A DNA stretch of 5,908 nucleotides, from positions 1 through 5,908 of the forward strand of contig JAZDEY010000026.1 of the NCBI GenBank assembly GCA_043808325.1, in the 5' to 3' direction. Position 1 is the first letter of the stretch. Every line of letters begins with the position of its first letter. The stretch comes from JAZDEY01 sp043808325 [NCBI: Candidatus Eiseniibacteriota bacterium]. GTDB lineage: Bacteria > Arandabacterota > Arandabacteria > Arandabacterales. Position numbers and translations under genes: made by a program. Under the pieces are notes generated by a model. The model worked only from the letters and a program-made list of their open reading frames with translations, ran no database searches and was not told where the DNA came from. Positions 1-5,907 of this stretch are shown piece after piece.

Positions 1-139
1 TGGCAAAGCAGGGCAACCACATCCGTATCACCCACATCATCCGCCACACCAATAACGTCGCAAGGCGTCCACGGCCCCACGCGCCATCATCCCCGTAACG
101 AACCCCTGCCCCCACCCGCGAAAACTGACAGAGGGCAAG
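1..139. repeat. Left copy of a perfect 139-bp inverted repeat, cut by the window edge
   Basis: Bases 1-139 are the exact reverse complement of 5769-5907 (position i pairs with 5908-i). The identity breaks at base 140 (A here, G in the other copy), then GCC at 141-143 matches again. The copy runs off the window, so the full element is longer than what is visible. It is C-rich on this strand, with three loosely repeated CCACATC-like units at 17-50, and shows no convincing gene, transposase or strong hairpin. Read toward the window centre, it leads directly into a promoter whose -35 box begins 12 bp after the repeat ends. It could be a dispersed intergenic repeat, a shared upstream regulatory region, or the end of a mobile element; sequence alone does not decide. 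Confidence 0.93.
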
Positions 140-151
140 AGCCTGCAGCGA

Positions 152-180: not shown

Positions 181-197
181 GTAATGTCTGAACTATG

Positions 198-204
198 AAG
201 GAGG
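198..204 (+). promoter_or_regulatory. Shine-Dalgarno site fixing the M28 peptidase start
   Basis: AAGGAGG at 198-204 is a near-perfect Shine-Dalgarno sequence, 5 bases before ATG at 210. An upstream in-frame ATG at 195 overlaps this site and has no ribosome binding site of its own, so 210 is the preferred start. Confidence 0.85.
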
Positions 205-209
205 CTTCG

Positions 210-2744
210 ATGCCGTCACATCTTAGAGTAGTTACGTTGATTACGGTCTTGGCGCTTCTTGCGTTTGCTGGTATGGCGGACGCAGGTCCGGAATCCATAG
301 GAAAGCCGAATCTTATCCAGATCAAGAGCGGGGTGGCACAGGCGCAGGTCGGCCCCACCGGCCTTGCCGACGTCCAGGGCTACCTTAAGCTTATTGGCAG
401 GGGAGCAGATGAAGAATTCTTCTACGCCTGGGCTCCGGCCCTGAAGGTGCTCGAGGCTCGAGGCATCGCTTACTCGGTCCTGCTCAGCGATGCCGACGGA
501 GTCGAGTTGTACTTGGTCCCCAAGGCATCCGGTGTGGATCACAGTGCTGTCGAGCAGGTGTCCACGATCCTCAGTGAAGACGGCTTATTCTACCTGGTTT
601 CGGTGAAGCCCGAGGATACGGCCGGGGTAGAGGCGCTGCCGGCCAAGCAGTTGTTGCCGCGGTTGTGGGAGGCGGGCTTGCCGCTACAGCCGGCTCGCGT
701 GATTGCGGAGGCTCCGGCTTACGCGCCACTGGCGTACAATTCCACGATTCAGGCTGCCGTCGATGCGGTATCCCAGTCCAATCTCTATACGCTGCTGAGC
801 GGGCTTTCGGGTGAGAACCCGGTCTTGATTGGCGGCCAGCCCTATACTATCGCGACACGGTATTCCCCCACAGAGGGTTGCAGGAAGGCCGCGGAGTACC
901 TCAAGGAGCAGTTTGAGGCACTCGGCGTCGCCACCGAGTACGACTACTTTAACTTCAGAAAGTGGCTGACCTCAGTCGATTTTCCCGAGGACAATCTTGC
1001 TGGTTGGGCCGTCGGCGGCTCCCTGATACTGCGTACCGATAACAGCGGACAGGTCTGGTACAAGCTGGAAGATGGCACCGATGCCAGCTTGAGGGGTGTC
1101 TTCATGTTTGATAATGAGACCGGCTGTGTTGTTGGGGGGGGCGGCACGGTTCTCCTTACTGACGACGGTGCGACCTGGCAGACGGTCACGACTCCTACTA
1201 CCTCCGATCTCAAGGCCGTTTTCTTTGTTGATGCTTCAGTCGGGTACTGCTGTGGGGCAGGAGGGACGATCCTCAAGTCCACCGATGGCGGGCATTCCTG
1301 GTCTGCGCTCACGAGCGGCACAACGCAGGAACTGAACAGTATCTACTTCACCAGTGCAACCCAGGGCTGGGTAGTGGGTGCCGTGGGAACGATCCGGCGG
1401 ACCTCGAACGGAGGCTCGACGTGGCAGACGGTCACGAGCCCGGTCACCGGCGACCTCAACGGCGTTGTGATCACCAGTGCCACGACCGGTGCCATCGTCG
1501 GGGATGCCGGTGTTGTGCTCAGGACCCTGGATGGCGCGGCCTGGCAGACGGTCACCAGTCCGGTCACGGACGATCTCTCCGGGCTCTTCTTCGTCAACCA
1601 GTCGGTGGGCTGGGCCTGTGGAAACGGTGGAGCCACTATTAAGACGCTCGATGGCGGCACGACCTGGAGTGATCAGAGCAGCTCCGTCAACTACCTGCTG
1701 ACTGCGGTGCACTTCGCCAATCCGAGTGAGGGCTGGATGGTTGGAAATGCGGTCATACTTCACTCTCTGGACGGTGGTGTGAGCTGGGAAAACCAGACCG
1801 ACAACATCCAGGCCGGCGATGTCAACGTGGTCGCCACCCTCCCCGGGACCACACATCCTGAAGAGATTTACATTATTGGCGCCCATTATGACGACACGTC
1901 TCCATCCTATATGACGTATGCGCCCGGCGCCGACGACAACGGCACCGGCACGATTGCCACGGTGGAGGCCGCAAGAGTGCTCAAGGATCTCCACTTCGAG
2001 GCGACCCTCAAGTTCATCTGCTTCTCACGAGAGGAACAGGGCCTGGTGGGAAGCGCCGCCTATGCCCGGAAAGCCTCGCAGCGCGGAGATTCCATCCGCG
2101 GGATGATTGACTTCGACATGATAGGCTACGTCGATGTGAGTCCTGAGGACATAGACATAATCTATAACGGCATCTCCCTCTGGTTCGCCAACGCTTACGA
2201 GGCGGCCGCGGGGCTCTACGTTCCCGATCTTCTCGTGGCCACCAAGTACGGGCCGGGGATGTCCGGGAGCGACCATGCGTCTTTCTGGAGCTATGGGTAC
2301 AGTTCCTTCTGCGGGATAGAGGACTTACCCCTCGCCAATCCTTACTATCATCGGACCGGCGACAGGGTCTCCACCCTCAACTTTGATTTCTACACGGACG
2401 TGGTGAAGAGCGGGGTCGCGACCCTCGCAGAGCTGGCGAGGCTCGATACGGTAACCACATCGGTCCCGGCGATCGCCCTCGATCCCGGCCTCAAGGTAGG
2501 ACCGAATCCGGCCAGGGGCGAGATCTCAATTGAGATGGCCTTCGGCGGGGCCAGGGCGCAGGCCGTTGACATCTATGATGTCGCAGGCAGACTTGTTACC
2601 AGCGTCAAGCCCTCGGTCGAGAATGGGATAGCCAAGGCGCTATGGCAAGGCGATGACGCTTCAGGTGCCAAGGTCAGCGCCGGCATCTACTTCGTCAGAG
2701 TCCAGGGGCACGACCCAGCGGTCAAGATTGTGCTGGTAAAATAG
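210..2744 (+). CDS. Exported M28-family zinc peptidase with an inserted seven-bladed YCF48/BNR-like propeller and C-terminal sorting domain
   Basis: The predicted product is an 844-residue secreted metallo-aminopeptidase-like enzyme (numbering from ATG 210; the ATG at 195 would add five residues). Residues 1-25 form a signal peptide with likely cleavage after ADA. Residues about 26-170 are an N-terminal region I do not recognise, perhaps a propeptide. The M28 fold begins at about 175-248, is interrupted by seven propeller repeats (about 253-531), and resumes to about 740. By alignment to Streptomyces griseus aminopeptidase, zinc ligands are His559 (GAHYDD), Asp576 (DDNGTG), Glu609, Asp636 (DFDMIGY) and His714 (YYHRTGD); Glu608 is the general base and Tyr713 matches the catalytic tyrosine. 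All are present, so an active two-zinc exopeptidase is expected. Residues about 762-844 (GPNPARG, IYDVAGRLV, AGIYFVRV) form a FlgD-like / type IX-type sorting domain, implying delivery to the surface or release. It is transcribed alone from the promoter at 152-180. The substrate is unknown. Confidence 0.93.
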   Translation: MPSHLRVVTLITVLALLAFAGMADAGPESIGKPNLIQIKSGVAQAQVGPTGLADVQGYLKLIGRGADEEFFYAWAPALKVLEARGIAYSVLLSDADGVELYLVPKASGVDHSAVEQVSTILSEDGLFYLVSVKPEDTAGVEALPAKQLLPRLWEAGLPLQPARVIAEAPAYAPLAYNSTIQAAVDAVSQSNLYTLLSGLSGENPVLIGGQPYTIATRYSPTEGCRKAAEYLKEQFEALGVATEYDYFNFRKWLTSVDFPEDNLAGWAVGGSLILRTDNSGQVWYKLEDGTDASLRGVFMFDNETGCVVGGGGTVLLTDDGATWQTVTTPTTSDLKAVFFVDASVGYCCGAGGTILKSTDGGHSWSALTSGTTQELNSIYFTSATQGWVVGAVGTIRRTSNGGSTWQTVTSPVTGDLNGVVITSATTGAIVGDAGVVLRTLDGAAWQTVTSPVTDDLSGLFFVNQSVGWACGNGGATIKTLDGGTTWSDQSSSVNYLLTAVHFANPSEGWMVGNAVILHSLDGGVSWENQTDNIQAGDVNVVATLPGTTHPEEIYIIGAHYDDTSPSYMTYAPGADDNGTGTIATVEAARVLKDLHFEATLKFICFSREEQGLVGSAAYARKASQRGDSIRGMIDFDMIGYVDVSPEDIDIIYNGISLWFANAYEAAAGLYVPDLLVATKYGPGMSGSDHASFWSYGYSSFCGIEDLPLANPYYHRTGDRVSTLNFDFYTDVVKSGVATLAELARLDTVTTSVPAIALDPGLKVGPNPARGEISIEMAFGGARAQAVDIYDVAGRLVTSVKPSVENGIAKALWQGDDASGAKVSAGIYFVRVQGHDPAVKIVLVK
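966..1802 (+). repeat. Seven tandem propeller-blade repeats of about 40 codons within the M28 gene
   Basis: Seven units of 40-41 residues follow the pattern L..V.F.....GW.VG..G.I..T.DGG..W....... Approximate residue ranges (from ATG 210) are 253-292, 293-332, 333-373, 374-414, 415-454, 455-495 and 496-531. Landmark cores are GWAVG, GCVVG, GYCCG, GWVVG, GAIVG, GWACG and GWMVG, each followed by a T/S-x-x-G-x-x-W turn. This is the YCF48/BNR-like propeller signature, and seven units are enough to close one propeller. At the DNA level the 14-mer TGGCAGACGGTCAC recurs at 1176, 1422 and 1542. The spacings of 246 and 120 bases correspond to two blades and one blade, which suggests recent blade duplication. 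The propeller probably serves as a binding or scaffold module; its ligand cannot be inferred. Confidence 0.88.
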
Positions 2745-2763
2745 ATTCACGACTAGGCCAGAA

Positions 2764-2811
2764 GAAACAGGGGTCTTAGGGCATTGCTTCCTGCCCGTAG
2801 GCCCCTGTTTC
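2764..2811. terminator. Large stem-loop between convergent genes, probable terminator
   Basis: A 10-bp perfect outer stem (GAAACAGGGG 2764-2773 with 2802-2811) continues through a T-G wobble and two more pairs. After a two-base mismatch it closes with GGGCA/TGCCC (2779-2783 with 2792-2796) around an 8-base loop at 2784-2791. It starts 20 bases after the M28 stop codon. On the plus strand the tail is not a clean T-run. On the minus strand the arm is followed by TTTCTTCT, closer to a classic Rho-independent signal, so it may terminate tldDE readthrough as well as the M28 transcript. Confidence 0.75.
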
Positions 2812-2815
2812 GATT

Positions 2816-2880
2816 GGCCGGTTAAGGCAAGGATCTTCCGTCAGGAAGCAATTCCCTCAGACCCTTGCCTTTTCCCGGCC
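2816..2880. terminator. Second long stem-loop in the convergent intergenic region
   Basis: GGCCGG (2816-2821) pairs with CCGGCC (2875-2880). After a small internal loop, AAGGCAAGG (2824-2832) pairs with CCTTGCCTT (2863-2871). The apical part can fold either as CTTCC/GGAAG (2835-2839 with 2844-2848) or as GGAA/TTCC with a GCAA loop (2844-2855). It lies 21 bases beyond the tldE stop codon as read on the minus strand. Neither strand has a strong T-run right after the stem, so its role may be transcript 3'-end protection or bidirectional termination together with the neighbouring hairpin. Confidence 0.6.
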
Positions 2881-2901: not shown

Positions 2902-4245
2902 CTAGAAATCGGTCTTACCGCTGAAATTGAAGTTCTTGATCTTAAGGGCCGGCAGCACATCGGCGCCGAACCAGTCGGAGAGATGCATCCGCGTATCCTT
3001 TGAGATCATCTCGACCGCGGAGAACGCATCCAGCATGCTGTGAGTGAATCTCAGGTTCTTGACCGGGTACTTTATCTTGCCGCCCTCGACATAGAATGTG
3101 CCGTCGCGCGTCATCCCGGTAAAGAGGGCACGCCTGGGTTCGAGGAGGCCGTTCACATAGTGAAACCTTGTGACCAGAAGGCCCCTGTGGAGGGACGCGA
3201 TCATCTCTTCGCGAGTGTGCTTGCCGGTAGCGAAAAAGATATTGGTCGGCATCGCACTAATCTCATCGGTAGGAGGGAGCGCGTGGCCGGTTGAGGAGCG
3301 CTTCTCCTTGTGCGCCTTCATGGTGTTATAGACCACGCCCTTGGCTATGCCGTTCTGGACCAGGTCCACCCGCTGCTTGGGCACGCCTTCAAAATCGAAG
3401 GGCAGTGGATTGCCGCTGGGATCGAGCCCGTCGTCCCACATCGAGACGTTCTCTCCCATGATCCTCTCGCCGATCCTGCCGGACATGAAACTGCGGCCGT
3501 CCTGGTAGGAATCGGCGCTGAAGCCGATATAAGCCAGCCAGTTCATGAGGTCGCTGAGGGCGCGCGGAGTGATCACCACGTCGTAGCGTCCCTCCGGAAT
3601 ATCCCTGGGGTTCTGGCTCTCGGCGCATATCCGGACCGCCTCCTCGGCCAGCTTCCCCGGATCGAAGCCGGCCAGGTCGAGCGTGGAAAGGTCCGCGTAA
3701 CCGGAACCGGTGGGTGACATCACCACCGTATTCATGTAGACCGCTGTACACTTGTGGTACTGCTCAGTGCCGAGGGAATTCACGAAGGCCAGTTCCTTCG
3801 CCGAGGTCGAGTGTGAACCTGCCGCGAGGAAGCTAAACTTGTCGGCCTGGTCGATCACCACTTTGACGTTCCCGGCACGGCGGTCGGCCCCGCACTTTTC
3901 GGTCTCGGCATCGAAGGCTTCAACCTGCTTTGCCCTCGGGGACTTGACAAACGATTCGAACTCGGGGTTGTCGACCTGCTTCCGAGCAATCTCAACTGCC
4001 CGCTTGGCGATCTGCTTAAGGGCCTCGGGCTCCATCAGGTTGGAAGAGACCACGCCAAGCTTCTTCCCGACAGCCGCCCGCAAATAGATGATGCTGTCCT
4101 TCTCAAACACATTCTGATGAATGGTCGAATTGGCGAACCGCGTCAGGCCGCTTGAGACTCCCATAAGGATCGCCTCGGCCTGGTCCGCCTCGACCGTCTT
4201 TACCATCTTCCTGAGAACGTCGAGTGCCTTCGCTTCACCTTGCAT
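2902..4245 (-). CDS. tldE: TldE/PmbA, non-catalytic partner of the TldD/TldE protease
   Basis: This gene encodes a 447-residue protein of the TldD/PmbA family, almost the length of E. coli PmbA (450). It lacks the HExxxH zinc motif, as expected for the TldE subunit. An N-terminal domain (about 1-125) carries the family pattern ANSTIHQN...LRAAVGKKLGVVSSN. The C-terminal domain contains FDFEGVPKQRVDLVQNGI (about 284-301), SSTGHA (about 317-322), a GLLVT strand and VEGGKIKYPVKNLRF (about 386-400), all of which line up with E. coli PmbA. In E. coli it forms a heterodimer with TldD enclosing the active chamber, used to degrade unfolded peptides and for microcin B17 leader removal. ATG at 4245 is preferred because AGGTG lies six bases upstream; a GTG at 4254 is possible but poorly spaced. 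The start overlaps the end of tldD by 11 bases, which implies translational coupling. Confidence 0.93.
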   Translation of the reverse strand: MQGEAKALDVLRKMVKTVEADQAEAILMGVSSGLTRFANSTIHQNVFEKDSIIYLRAAVGKKLGVVSSNLMEPEALKQIAKRAVEIARKQVDNPEFESFVKSPRAKQVEAFDAETEKCGADRRAGNVKVVIDQADKFSFLAAGSHSTSAKELAFVNSLGTEQYHKCTAVYMNTVVMSPTGSGYADLSTLDLAGFDPGKLAEEAVRICAESQNPRDIPEGRYDVVITPRALSDLMNWLAYIGFSADSYQDGRSFMSGRIGERIMGENVSMWDDGLDPSGNPLPFDFEGVPKQRVDLVQNGIAKGVVYNTMKAHKEKRSSTGHALPPTDEISAMPTNIFFATGKHTREEMIASLHRGLLVTRFHYVNGLLEPRRALFTGMTRDGTFYVEGGKIKYPVKNLRFTHSMLDAFSAVEMISKDTRMHLSDWFGADVLPALKIKNFNFSGKTDF

Positions 4246-5677
4246 TGCCGACACCTACCCTTACTTTTCTGAACCTCGCCGGCGCAGTTCCATGTGCGAC
4301 GTGCGCGACCTGCATCGGTTCACCTTTGCCGCAACTTGGGACTCCCCATATGTGCCAGTATTTCCTGCTGCACACTGCATCGCAGCTGGCCCAGAACTCA
4401 GGGGTGATGCCCGTGTAGACCGCGTTCTTGACCAAGCCTTCGATCTTGCCGTTTCGTATTCTCCAGGCCAATTCGGTGCCGAACTGGAAGTTGAGTCTCT
4501 TGTCGTCGATACTCCAGCTCTTGTTGGAGTCAACCAGGATGCCGTCCTTTGTATCCTTGATAAGATCATCGTAGTCCCAGGTACCCGGTTCCAGGTTGAT
4601 GTTGGTCATCCGGATGATCGGGATTCGGTTCCAGCCGTCGGCCCGCATGCAGCCGTTGCTCTTCTTCTGGAGCCGTGAGGCCGTCTCCCGCGAGGTGAGA
4701 TAGCCCACAAAGAGCCCTTCCTTGACGATGGGGGAGCGCTGGGCCGGTACGCCTTCGTCATCGTACCCGAAAGTGCCAAGGCCGCCCTCGCAGGTCGCAT
4801 CGGCGAAGATCGACACCTGTTTGGAGCCGTACTTGAAGTTGCCCATCTTCTCAACCGTGAGAAAGCTTGTTCCCGCGAAGCTCGCCTCGGTGCCGAACAC
4901 GCGATCCAGTTCCGTCGGGTGGCCGCAGGATTCGTGAACCTGGAGGGCAAGCTGGGAGCCTCCGATAATGAGGTCCATCTCGCCGGAGGGGCACTCCGGC
5001 GCAGCGAGCAAGCCCGAGGCCTCGCCGGCCGCCTTTTCGGCATTCTCGACAAGACCCATCTCTTCCACGAATTCATAGCCGCGGGTTGCGGTATCTCCCC
5101 ACGAACCTGGGAAGGAGCGCCGCTGGACATCGCCGTTACTCACCGCCGTCGCCGTGATGCCGGCGCCGCTCTCGATGATGGTCTGGTCGATGTCGGCGCC
5201 TTCGGTGCTCAGGAAGAACTTGTCGGTCTGATAGAAGGACATCGCGCCCTCGGCCACCTTGATCGCCGGGTTCTTGCGCATCAGTCGGTCGGCCTCAAGC
5301 AGGACTGCGATCTTCTCGTCCAGCGAGATGGCGAAGGGGTCCTTCACGATCTTGGTGCGGTACCTGTCGACCTTGGGCTCCTGCTCGCCGAGATCCACAT
5401 CCATCTTCTTGAGCAACTTGGTCGCCTGGGCGATCTCAATCGCTTCCTTGGCGACACGGGCAGCCTCGTCTTTGGTGATGGTGGAGCTGCTGGAGAAGCC
5501 CCAGCACCCATCGACCACCACTCGTATGCCGAAGCCCTTTGAAGTGTTGTCGCTGATCGAATCGACCATGCCGTTCTTGGTTCGAATTCGCTCGCTTCGC
5601 GTCGTCACCACCCGGACGTCGGCGTAGTCCACCTTCTTCTTGATCGAATCCAGCACATCCCTGACAATGTCTTTCAC
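4235..5677 (-). CDS. tldD: TldD, zinc metalloprotease subunit of the TldD/TldE complex
   Basis: This gene encodes a 480-residue protein, matching the usual TldD length (E. coli 481). The N-terminal family domain includes DNTSKGFGIRVVVDG (about 43-57) followed by a serine-rich strand. The catalytic motif is HESCGH at residues 248-253 (HExxxH: His248, Glu249, His253). Cys449 in the C-terminal CGKG motif corresponds to the cysteine described as the third zinc ligand in E. coli TldD. A typical C-terminal block, VYTGITPEFW and GVPSCGKGEP through ARFRKV, is complete. With TldE it should form a cytoplasmic protease that cleaves small unfolded peptides. GTG at 5677 is preferred over GTG at 5707, since AAGGAGG (5692-5686) sits eight bases before it and the longer start would place the SD inside the gene and the leader hairpin partly within it. 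It is the first gene of the tldD-tldE operon. No precursor peptide or RiPP enzyme is nearby. Confidence 0.95.
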   Translation of the reverse strand: MKDIVRDVLDSIKKKVDYADVRVVTTRSERIRTKNGMVDSISDNTSKGFGIRVVVDGCWGFSSSSTITKDEAARVAKEAIEIAQATKLLKKMDVDLGEQEPKVDRYRTKIVKDPFAISLDEKIAVLLEADRLMRKNPAIKVAEGAMSFYQTDKFFLSTEGADIDQTIIESGAGITATAVSNGDVQRRSFPGSWGDTATRGYEFVEEMGLVENAEKAAGEASGLLAAPECPSGEMDLIIGGSQLALQVHESCGHPTELDRVFGTEASFAGTSFLTVEKMGNFKYGSKQVSIFADATCEGGLGTFGYDDEGVPAQRSPIVKEGLFVGYLTSRETASRLQKKSNGCMRADGWNRIPIIRMTNINLEPGTWDYDDLIKDTKDGILVDSNKSWSIDDKRLNFQFGTELAWRIRNGKIEGLVKNAVYTGITPEFWASCDAVCSRKYWHIWGVPSCGKGEPMQVAHVAHGTAPARFRKVRVGVGNAR

Positions 5678-5685
5678 ACGAACAC

Positions 5686-5692
5686 CCTCCTT
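5686..5692 (-). promoter_or_regulatory. Shine-Dalgarno site of tldD
   Basis: On the minus strand AAGGAGG (5692-5686) lies eight bases before GTG at 5677. It argues against the longer reading from GTG 5707. Its first base directly abuts the 3' arm of the leader hairpin at 5693-5715, so ribosome access could depend on that fold. Confidence 0.85.
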
Positions 5693-5715
5693 AAAATAGG
5701 GACACACCCCATTTT
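5693..5715 (-). promoter_or_regulatory. Stem-loop in the tldD 5' leader, abutting the Shine-Dalgarno
   Basis: On the minus strand AAAATGGGG (5715-5707) pairs with CCCTATTTT (5701-5693) around the loop TGTGT. This gives nine pairs including one G-U wobble. On the plus strand the same position is an A-C mismatch, so the fold fits RNA made in the tldD direction. With a transcription start near 5720 it would lie at the extreme 5' end of the mRNA, where hairpins can slow decay or tune ribosome loading. A small dispersed palindrome is an alternative explanation. Confidence 0.55.
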
Positions 5716-5756: not shown

Positions 5757-5768
5757 GGGGATTGGGCC

Positions 5769-5907
5769 CTTGCCCTCTGTCAGTTTTCGCGGGTGGGGGC
5801 AGGGGTTCGTTACGGGGATGATGGCGCGTGGGGCCGTGGACGCCTTGCGACGTTATTGGTGTGGCGGATGATGTGGGTGATACGGATGTGGTTGCCCTGC
5901 TTTGCCA
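5769..5907. repeat. Right copy of the perfect 139-bp inverted repeat
   Basis: This is the exact reverse complement of 1-139, oriented so that both copies point toward the gene they precede. It is G-rich on the plus strand. Base 5908 has no partner because the left copy is cut one base earlier by the window edge. Weak open frames run through it outward, but none has a ribosome binding site or a recognisable protein pattern. It lies upstream of the tldD promoter. Confidence 0.93.

What the first reader, a model, noticed from the sequence alone, without database searches (positions are those of the whole stretch)
840..1890. Seven-bladed propeller nested inside the M28 peptidase domain
The M28 fold starts before the propeller (TRYSPTEGCRKAAEYLKEQF and the following strand ATEYDYF) and resumes directly after it with NVVATLPGT and GAHYDD. 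In S. griseus aminopeptidase the corresponding two strands are joined by only a short loop. Here about 280 residues of YCF48/BNR-like propeller replace that loop, while every catalytic and zinc residue is kept. An in-fold insertion should hold the propeller in a fixed position relative to the peptidase and could gate substrates or bind a polymer or surface. Propellers appended to a terminus are common; insertion at this loop is less usual to my knowledge.
Basis: partly seen in the sequence, partly recalled or inferred. Interest (0 to 1): 0.6.

Follow-up and report, generated by a model that had tools for sequence, protein, structure and literature searches.

The report
Peptidase with a nested seven-bladed propeller
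A probably secreted bacterial zinc peptidase carries a complete seven-bladed propeller inside its catalytic fold, at the same spot where better-known relatives carry a small lid domain, and the same design recurs in several little-studied bacterial phyla.

Summary
The 849-residue ORF (195-2744, +) has one M28 di-zinc aminopeptidase core split by a seven-bladed YCF48-type propeller (residues about 256-542, nt 960-1820). AlphaFold2 plus structural alignment lays both flanks onto one Vibrio aminopeptidase chain (278 of 291 residues, Z 38.1). A profile of propeller-free relatives breaks in the window at positions 223/228 and in a PA-domain M28 protein at 228/223: the propeller sits in the hairpin where the PA lid inserts. 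The loop is thus a known insertion site; a propeller there is what I did not find described. Insert-spanning matches occur in seven of nine phylum groups surveyed, in 13 of 14 genomes of the Coatesbacteria-centred group. Catalytic residues are almost always kept. Propeller-bearing proteins are not one clade on the M28 core tree (AU p 0.0013). Best reading: a probably T9SS-exported aminopeptidase whose propeller is a lid or recognition platform, loosely like prolyl oligopeptidase; gating is inferred, not shown. A TldD/PmbA pair is a recurrent neighbour in some lineages.

The parts
195..2744 (+). ORF, 849 aa: N-domain, M28 core split by a propeller, C-terminal sorting domain; the ATG at 210 is an alternative start with GGAGG upstream
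   Evidence: start choice is from reading the sequence
210..284 (+). probable signal peptide
   Evidence: sequence reading only; not tested with a predictor
285..644 (+). N-terminal alpha/beta domain, partly shared with propeller-free relatives, possibly a propeptide
   Evidence: profile of propeller-free relatives matches from residue 72; mixed pLDDT; propeptide role inferred
720..959 (+). M28 core, N-terminal segment (helices and strand beta1)
960..1820 (+). inserted seven-bladed YCF48-type propeller
1821..2447 (+). M28 core, C-terminal segment with the zinc ligands
1884..1886 (+). zinc ligand H564
   Evidence: role recalled
1932..1934 (+). bridging ligand D580
   Evidence: role recalled
2031..2036 (+). 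E613 (general base) and E614 (zinc ligand)
   Evidence: roles recalled
2115..2117 (+). zinc ligand D641
   Evidence: role recalled
2349..2351 (+). zinc ligand H719
   Evidence: role recalled
2499..2741 (+). C-terminal T9SS type A sorting domain
   Evidence: TIGR04183 at 769-839, 28.7 bits against a cut-off of 23; Pfam Por_Secre_tail and FlgD_ig slightly below their cut-offs
2902..4254 (-). PmbA (TldE) homologue, neighbour
4235..5707 (-). TldD homologue, neighbour

Best explanation
It is a probably secreted M28 di-zinc aminopeptidase of the Vibrio proteolyticus type whose beta1-beta2 hairpin carries a whole seven-bladed propeller. SHOWN by computation: the two flanks form one M28 core; the propeller leaves and re-enters at the hairpin that carries the PA domain in PA-type M28 enzymes; catalytic residues are kept; a T9SS-type sorting domain is present. 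INFERRED: the propeller, tied by two strands to the catalytic sheet, acts as a lid or recognition platform that selects or presents peptide ends, as the PA domain does in Pseudomonas PaAP and as the in-fold propeller does in prolyl oligopeptidase. Extracellular release of amino acids from peptides is the likely job.
For: One core: 1amp aligned over 278 of 291 residues, Z 38.1, rmsd 2.2, model range 147-723; only 214 model residues follow the propeller within that range (510-723), so at least 64 aligned residues must lie before or in it, and the chain has no propeller to align. Profile break 223/228 in the window. Same site as PA: a Peribacillus M28 protein with a Pfam PA domain at 129-213 breaks at 228/223; the best profile stretch in PDB chains 2ek8, 6hc6, 8ac9 and 3fec starts at 220-223 (that 3fec has a PA domain is recalled). 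PaAP: M28 44-116 and 274-510, PA 117-273, which rotates about 40 degrees and makes the active site more accessible (PMC10449631, passages). Domain placement: pTM 0.87, pLDDT 95.2. Of 50 propeller-bearing proteins H564, D566, E613, E614 and D641 are kept in 50, H719 in 49, D580 in 47. Clean empty site against 14 propeller-free relatives. Sorting domain. Prolyl oligopeptidase: catalytic 1-71 and 436-710, propeller 72-435, described as a gating filter (PMC5306367, passages).
Against: No coordinates or PAE were available, so the distance and face between propeller and active site were not measured; pTM 0.87 is not full certainty. The 31 insert columns conserved at 80% or more are repeat-type residues (mostly G and W), so no shared binding site is visible. 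No activity data. The model is not independent of the alignment argument: its alignment held propeller-free relatives. T9SS machinery could not be checked, as no genome is held for the window, and one of three relatives scanned (L048) scores below the sorting-domain cut-off (16.3 of 23).
Confidence: 0.6

Rival explanations
1. The propeller is a binding module that holds the exported peptidase on a polymer, cell surface or partner protein; it does not control the active site.
For: The insert is less conserved than the core (mean pairwise identity 28.5% against 39.0%; core higher in 1201 of 1225 pairs) with no conserved non-repeat residues, as expected if each copy binds something else; several copies per genome in the Coatesbacteria-centred group.
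Against: A binding module could sit at a terminus; in the nested proteins where both flanks could be scored, the break lies at the hairpin that is the PA lid site. Faster evolution of repeats is also ordinary.
Confidence: 0.28
2. The propeller is mainly structural or regulatory (stability, autoinhibition with the N-terminal domain, folding before export) and binds no substrate.
For: An N-terminal domain partly shared with propeller-free relatives may be a propeptide.
Against: Propeller-free relatives matching over the same N-terminal region exist and keep the catalytic core, so the propeller is not needed for folding in general.
Confidence: 0.1
3. Tandem, not nested: a propeller between an unrelated N-terminal domain and a complete M28 domain, as the Pfam table alone suggests.
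For: Pfam M28 starts at residue 544, behind the propeller.
Against: The segment before the propeller is needed for the 278-residue match to 1amp and aligns with propeller-free relatives.
Confidence: 0.02

Closest known systems
Vibrio (Aeromonas) proteolytica aminopeptidase, 1amp, family M28
   Same: the catalytic core
   Different: short beta1-beta2 hairpin, no propeller (alignment)
PA-domain M28 aminopeptidases (PaAP, 2ek8, BSAP/YwaD)
   Same: M28 core interrupted by a whole domain at the same hairpin
   Different: the insert is a PA domain, not a propeller; no PA match in the window protein
CA_C2195 (DUF4910 with inserted DUF2172)
   Same: M28-like fold with a domain inserted at a site equivalent to that of PA (PMC4000134, passages)
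   Different: insert fold differs; one zinc and some ligands lost there
Prolyl oligopeptidase (S9)
   Same: seven-bladed propeller inserted in a peptidase fold (PMC5306367, passages)
   Different: alpha/beta-hydrolase, unrelated catalytic fold
Ycf48 / HCF136 propeller
   Same: PSII_BNR match and propeller fold
   Different: photosystem II assembly factor, not part of a peptidase; Ycf48 equivalog model far below its cut-off (99.5 of 326 bits)

Membership tests
Peptidase family M28 | M28 fold | tested here: met
   1amp Z 38.1 over 278 of 291 residues; PF04389 104.2 bits against 21.3
Peptidase family M28 | zinc ligands and catalytic residues | tested here: met
   H564, D566, D580, E613, E614, D641, H719 present; roles recalled
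Peptidase family M28 | zinc-dependent aminopeptidase activity | not testable with these tools
   needs an assay
PA-domain M28 enzymes | domain inserted in the beta1-beta2 hairpin | tested here: met
   profile breaks at 223/228 (window) and 228/223 (PA protein L099)
PA-domain M28 enzymes | the insert is a PA domain (PF02225) | tested here: not met
   no PA match listed at E up to 1; the insert is a propeller
YCF48/BNR-type seven-bladed propellers | repeat match and seven-bladed fold | tested here: met
   PF14870 98 bits against 27, though PF02012 BNR is below its cut-off; 7bie Z 33.5, 278 of 286
YCF48 proper | equivalog-level match to Ycf48 | tested here: not met
   99.5 bits against a cut-off of 326
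Prolyl oligopeptidase family S9 | alpha/beta-hydrolase serine catalytic domain | tested here: not met
   the catalytic part is M28
Prolyl oligopeptidase-like gating (works like) | propeller limits access to the active site | not testable with these tools
   no coordinates, no kinetics
Type IX secretion cargo | T9SS type A sorting domain | tested here: met
   TIGR04183 28.7 bits against 23 in the window protein; above it in L023 and L033, below in L048
Type IX secretion cargo | T9SS machinery in the same genome | not tested
   no genome held for the window

The most novel reading that the evidence does not exclude
Several lineages of M28 aminopeptidases independently captured a seven-bladed propeller in the PA hairpin and became metallo-counterparts of prolyl oligopeptidase, with the propeller gating the active site; in some lineages they work with a dedicated TldD/PmbA pair in one peptide-processing route.
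Probability: 0.2. Interest if true: 0.7.

Novelty: new variant of a known kind. Interest (0 to 1): 0.5.

Why it matters
It shows that the M28 hairpin known as the PA site can host a much larger, unrelated domain, and perhaps did so more than once. It offers a natural comparison set (PA, propeller, empty) for asking how an inserted domain controls an exopeptidase. Domain tables that list M28 after YCF48, as Pfam does here, hide the nesting, so such genes may be read as plain tandem proteins.

Tried and rejected
One origin of the nested design on the M28 core tree: rejected (10 changes against a shuffled mean of 38.3, at least 4 forced by starred branches; AU p 0.0013). Gain and loss cannot be told apart. 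Whether the inserted propellers share one origin: inconclusive; 14 proteins taken as free-standing propellers (one of them hardly matching) score within the range of the inserts or above it, and repeats make such comparisons unreliable. The viral fold search listed mainly phage proteins, several with propeller-type names, and I followed none. A MAFFT alignment with the PA protein misplaced N-terminal segments, so I used the profile split instead.

Limits of the survey: matches had to reach E 1e-90 (1e-60), and only part of the first-look candidates was scored in many genomes (at most 29 per genome, 10 in 68, 34 in 69, 17 in 70, 3 in 79, 4 in 80 and 107, 9 in 81, in the rows shown), so low or zero counts are lower bounds, most of all in the Bacteroidota-, Chloroflexota- and Aminicenantes-centred groups. 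Groups are named after the record title of the locus used as centre; the genomes themselves are unnamed. The genome of L019, the nearest relative, is not among the 47. The count of Asp-box motifs is a regular expression, not a domain search. Tree rows: from the 80 loci, five failed the core filter (L030, L055, L077, L079, L096); of the 88 loci L101-L188 I gave 43; two cut proteins (L039, L047), four duplicates and one ORF fragment were then dropped.

Full report
WHAT IS THERE. The window holds an 849-residue ORF (195-2744, +) followed by PmbA and TldD homologues on the other strand. Pfam lists M28 at 544-732 and PSII_BNR repeats before it, which would look like a tandem. A profile of 23 propeller-free relatives shows otherwise: it matches residues 72-255 with profile positions 57-223 and residues 543-751 with 228-436, so one M28 protein is interrupted by residues 256-542. 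A direct alignment with 14 propeller-free relatives shows the empty site.

STRUCTURE. AlphaFold2 on 45 aligned sequences gave pLDDT 87.5 and pTM 0.75 for residues 30-849; residues 178-750 alone gave pLDDT 95.2 and pTM 0.87. VIA-align matched 1amp over 278 of its 291 residues (Z 38.1, rmsd 2.2) across model 147-723, and a seven-bladed designed propeller (7bie) across model 225-509 (Z 33.5, 278 of 286). As only 214 model residues lie behind the propeller within that range, at least 64 of the residues aligned to 1amp must come from before residue 510, and the segment before the propeller is the natural source. If the two domains were placed at random I would expect a pTM near 0.5 to 0.6; that is my own estimate, and no PAE was available.

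THE SITE IS THE PA SITE. A Peribacillus M28 protein with a Pfam PA domain at 129-213 is split by the same profile at 228/223. In the PDB search the best stretch starts at profile 220-223 in 2ek8, 6hc6, 8ac9 and glutamate carboxypeptidase III 3fec, while it is continuous from 160 in 1amp. PaAP is described as M28 44-116 and 274-510 with the PA domain 117-273 between them, the PA domain rotating and opening the active site, and as similar to 2ek8 and 6hc6 (PMC10449631, passages). PMC4000134 (passages) notes that PA and DUF2172 are inserted at structurally equivalent sites. The new element here is thus the kind of insert, not the site.

SPREAD. Among the 80 loci kept by the genome scan (a capped list), 19 carry at least two Asp-box motifs before the core in one ORF and 2 more, cut or short, carry one; 59 have none. 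Whole-genome searches with the nested profile, grouped by the phylum of the centre: Eisenbacteria centre, 5 of 47 genomes with full-span matches (14 of 47 with any match at 1e-60); Zixibacteria centre, 14 of 132 with a match at 1e-90, 11 of them full-span; Calditrichota centre, 7 of 40, one cut; Krumholzibacteriota centre, 19 of 80, one partial; Coatesbacteria centre, 14 of 14, one of them (G309) only partial, and up to 10 matches in one genome; Bacteroidota centre, 2 of 395; WOR-3 centre, 8 of 147; Chloroflexota centre, 0 of 301; Aminicenantes centre, 0 of 297. Six single genomes behind propeller-free loci gave 0 of 6. In the 54 proteins where both flanks were matched the insert is 280-307 residues long.

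EVOLUTION. On a tree of the M28 core without the insert (114 rows, 58 nested and 56 plain) the nested state needs 10 changes against a shuffled mean of 38.3, and one clade is rejected (AU p 0.0013). So the design is clustered (near relatives help that) but was gained or lost more than once. Free-standing propellers do not separate cleanly from the inserts, so repeated capture is possible and not shown. Across 50 nested proteins the catalytic residues are nearly all kept, while the insert keeps repeat-type residues in its 31 best-conserved columns and is less alike than the core in 1201 of 1225 pairs.

MECHANISM. A likely signal peptide (my reading) and a T9SS type A sorting domain above its cut-off suggest export. 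I infer an extracellular aminopeptidase with a propeller lid or recognition platform. The closest working analogue is prolyl oligopeptidase, where a seven-bladed propeller splits the catalytic domain and is described as a gating filter (PMC5306367, passages); the window protein is not a member of that family. What speaks against a firm claim is the lack of coordinates, kinetics and conserved surface residues.

NEIGHBOURS. The nearest relative, L019 (record titled Candidatus Eisenbacteria; 64% identity over 206 core columns), has the same convergent PmbA and TldD genes (70% and 78% identity), so the window probably comes from a related organism. In the Krumholzibacteriota-centred group a TldD gene lies divergently next to the nested gene in 15 of 19 loci read, with PmbA behind it in 12 of these; in the other 4 the contig ends on that side. 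In 12 of those 19 genomes, searched whole, there are 2 to 4 PmbA/TldD-family matches per genome, and two of them lie beside the nested gene in all 12. These genomes are related, so they are not 12 independent cases. Elsewhere the link is weaker: 3 of 14 loci in the Zixibacteria-centred group (1.4 to 4.5 kb away), 3 of 10 in the Coatesbacteria-centred group, 0 of 6 Calditrichota-centred, 0 of 7 Eisenbacteria-centred, 0 of 3 others. None of the 59 propeller-free loci showed TldD or PmbA within the flanks held, by tblastn at 1e-10, but these come largely from other lineages and some flanks are short. TldD/E is described as a heterodimeric metalloprotease that trims unfolded polypeptides (PMC5810440, abstract). 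A shared peptide route is a guess.

LITERATURE. Searches covered the open library only. From their listings, and from passages of four papers and one abstract, I saw no description of a propeller inserted in an M28 peptidase. Most subscription papers are not held.

VERDICT. Observation confirmed; nesting supported; gating open; a new variant of a known kind, of moderate interest.

Noticed in passing
window 2902-5707 (-); L146, L189-L206, L207, L217, L218, L238, L240, L241: TldD/PmbA genes recur beside propeller-bearing M28 genes; in the Krumholzibacteriota-centred group TldD is divergently adjacent in the 15 of 19 loci where the contig does not end on that side.
   Followed up: partly
window 1-143 and 5765-5907: A 143-nt inverted repeat (142 of 143 matching) at both ends of the window, probably where an assembly stopped at a repeat; no other copy found in the loci held at that time.
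   Followed up: partly
genomes G304-G308: Six to ten matches to the nested profile per genome in five genomes of the Coatesbacteria-centred group, a few of them partial.
   Followed up: partly
L244:7682-10528 and 10525-12663: Two nested genes in tandem, their open frames overlapping by a few bases, in a genome of the Bacteroidota-centred group.
   Followed up: no
window 2756-2819: Inverted repeat between the convergent genes, possibly a two-way terminator.
   Followed up: no
L011:2372-4654: A 760-residue protein with an M28 region in its C-terminal part on a contig of the viral collection, upstream of an ORF that looks like a tape measure protein (my reading).
   Followed up: no
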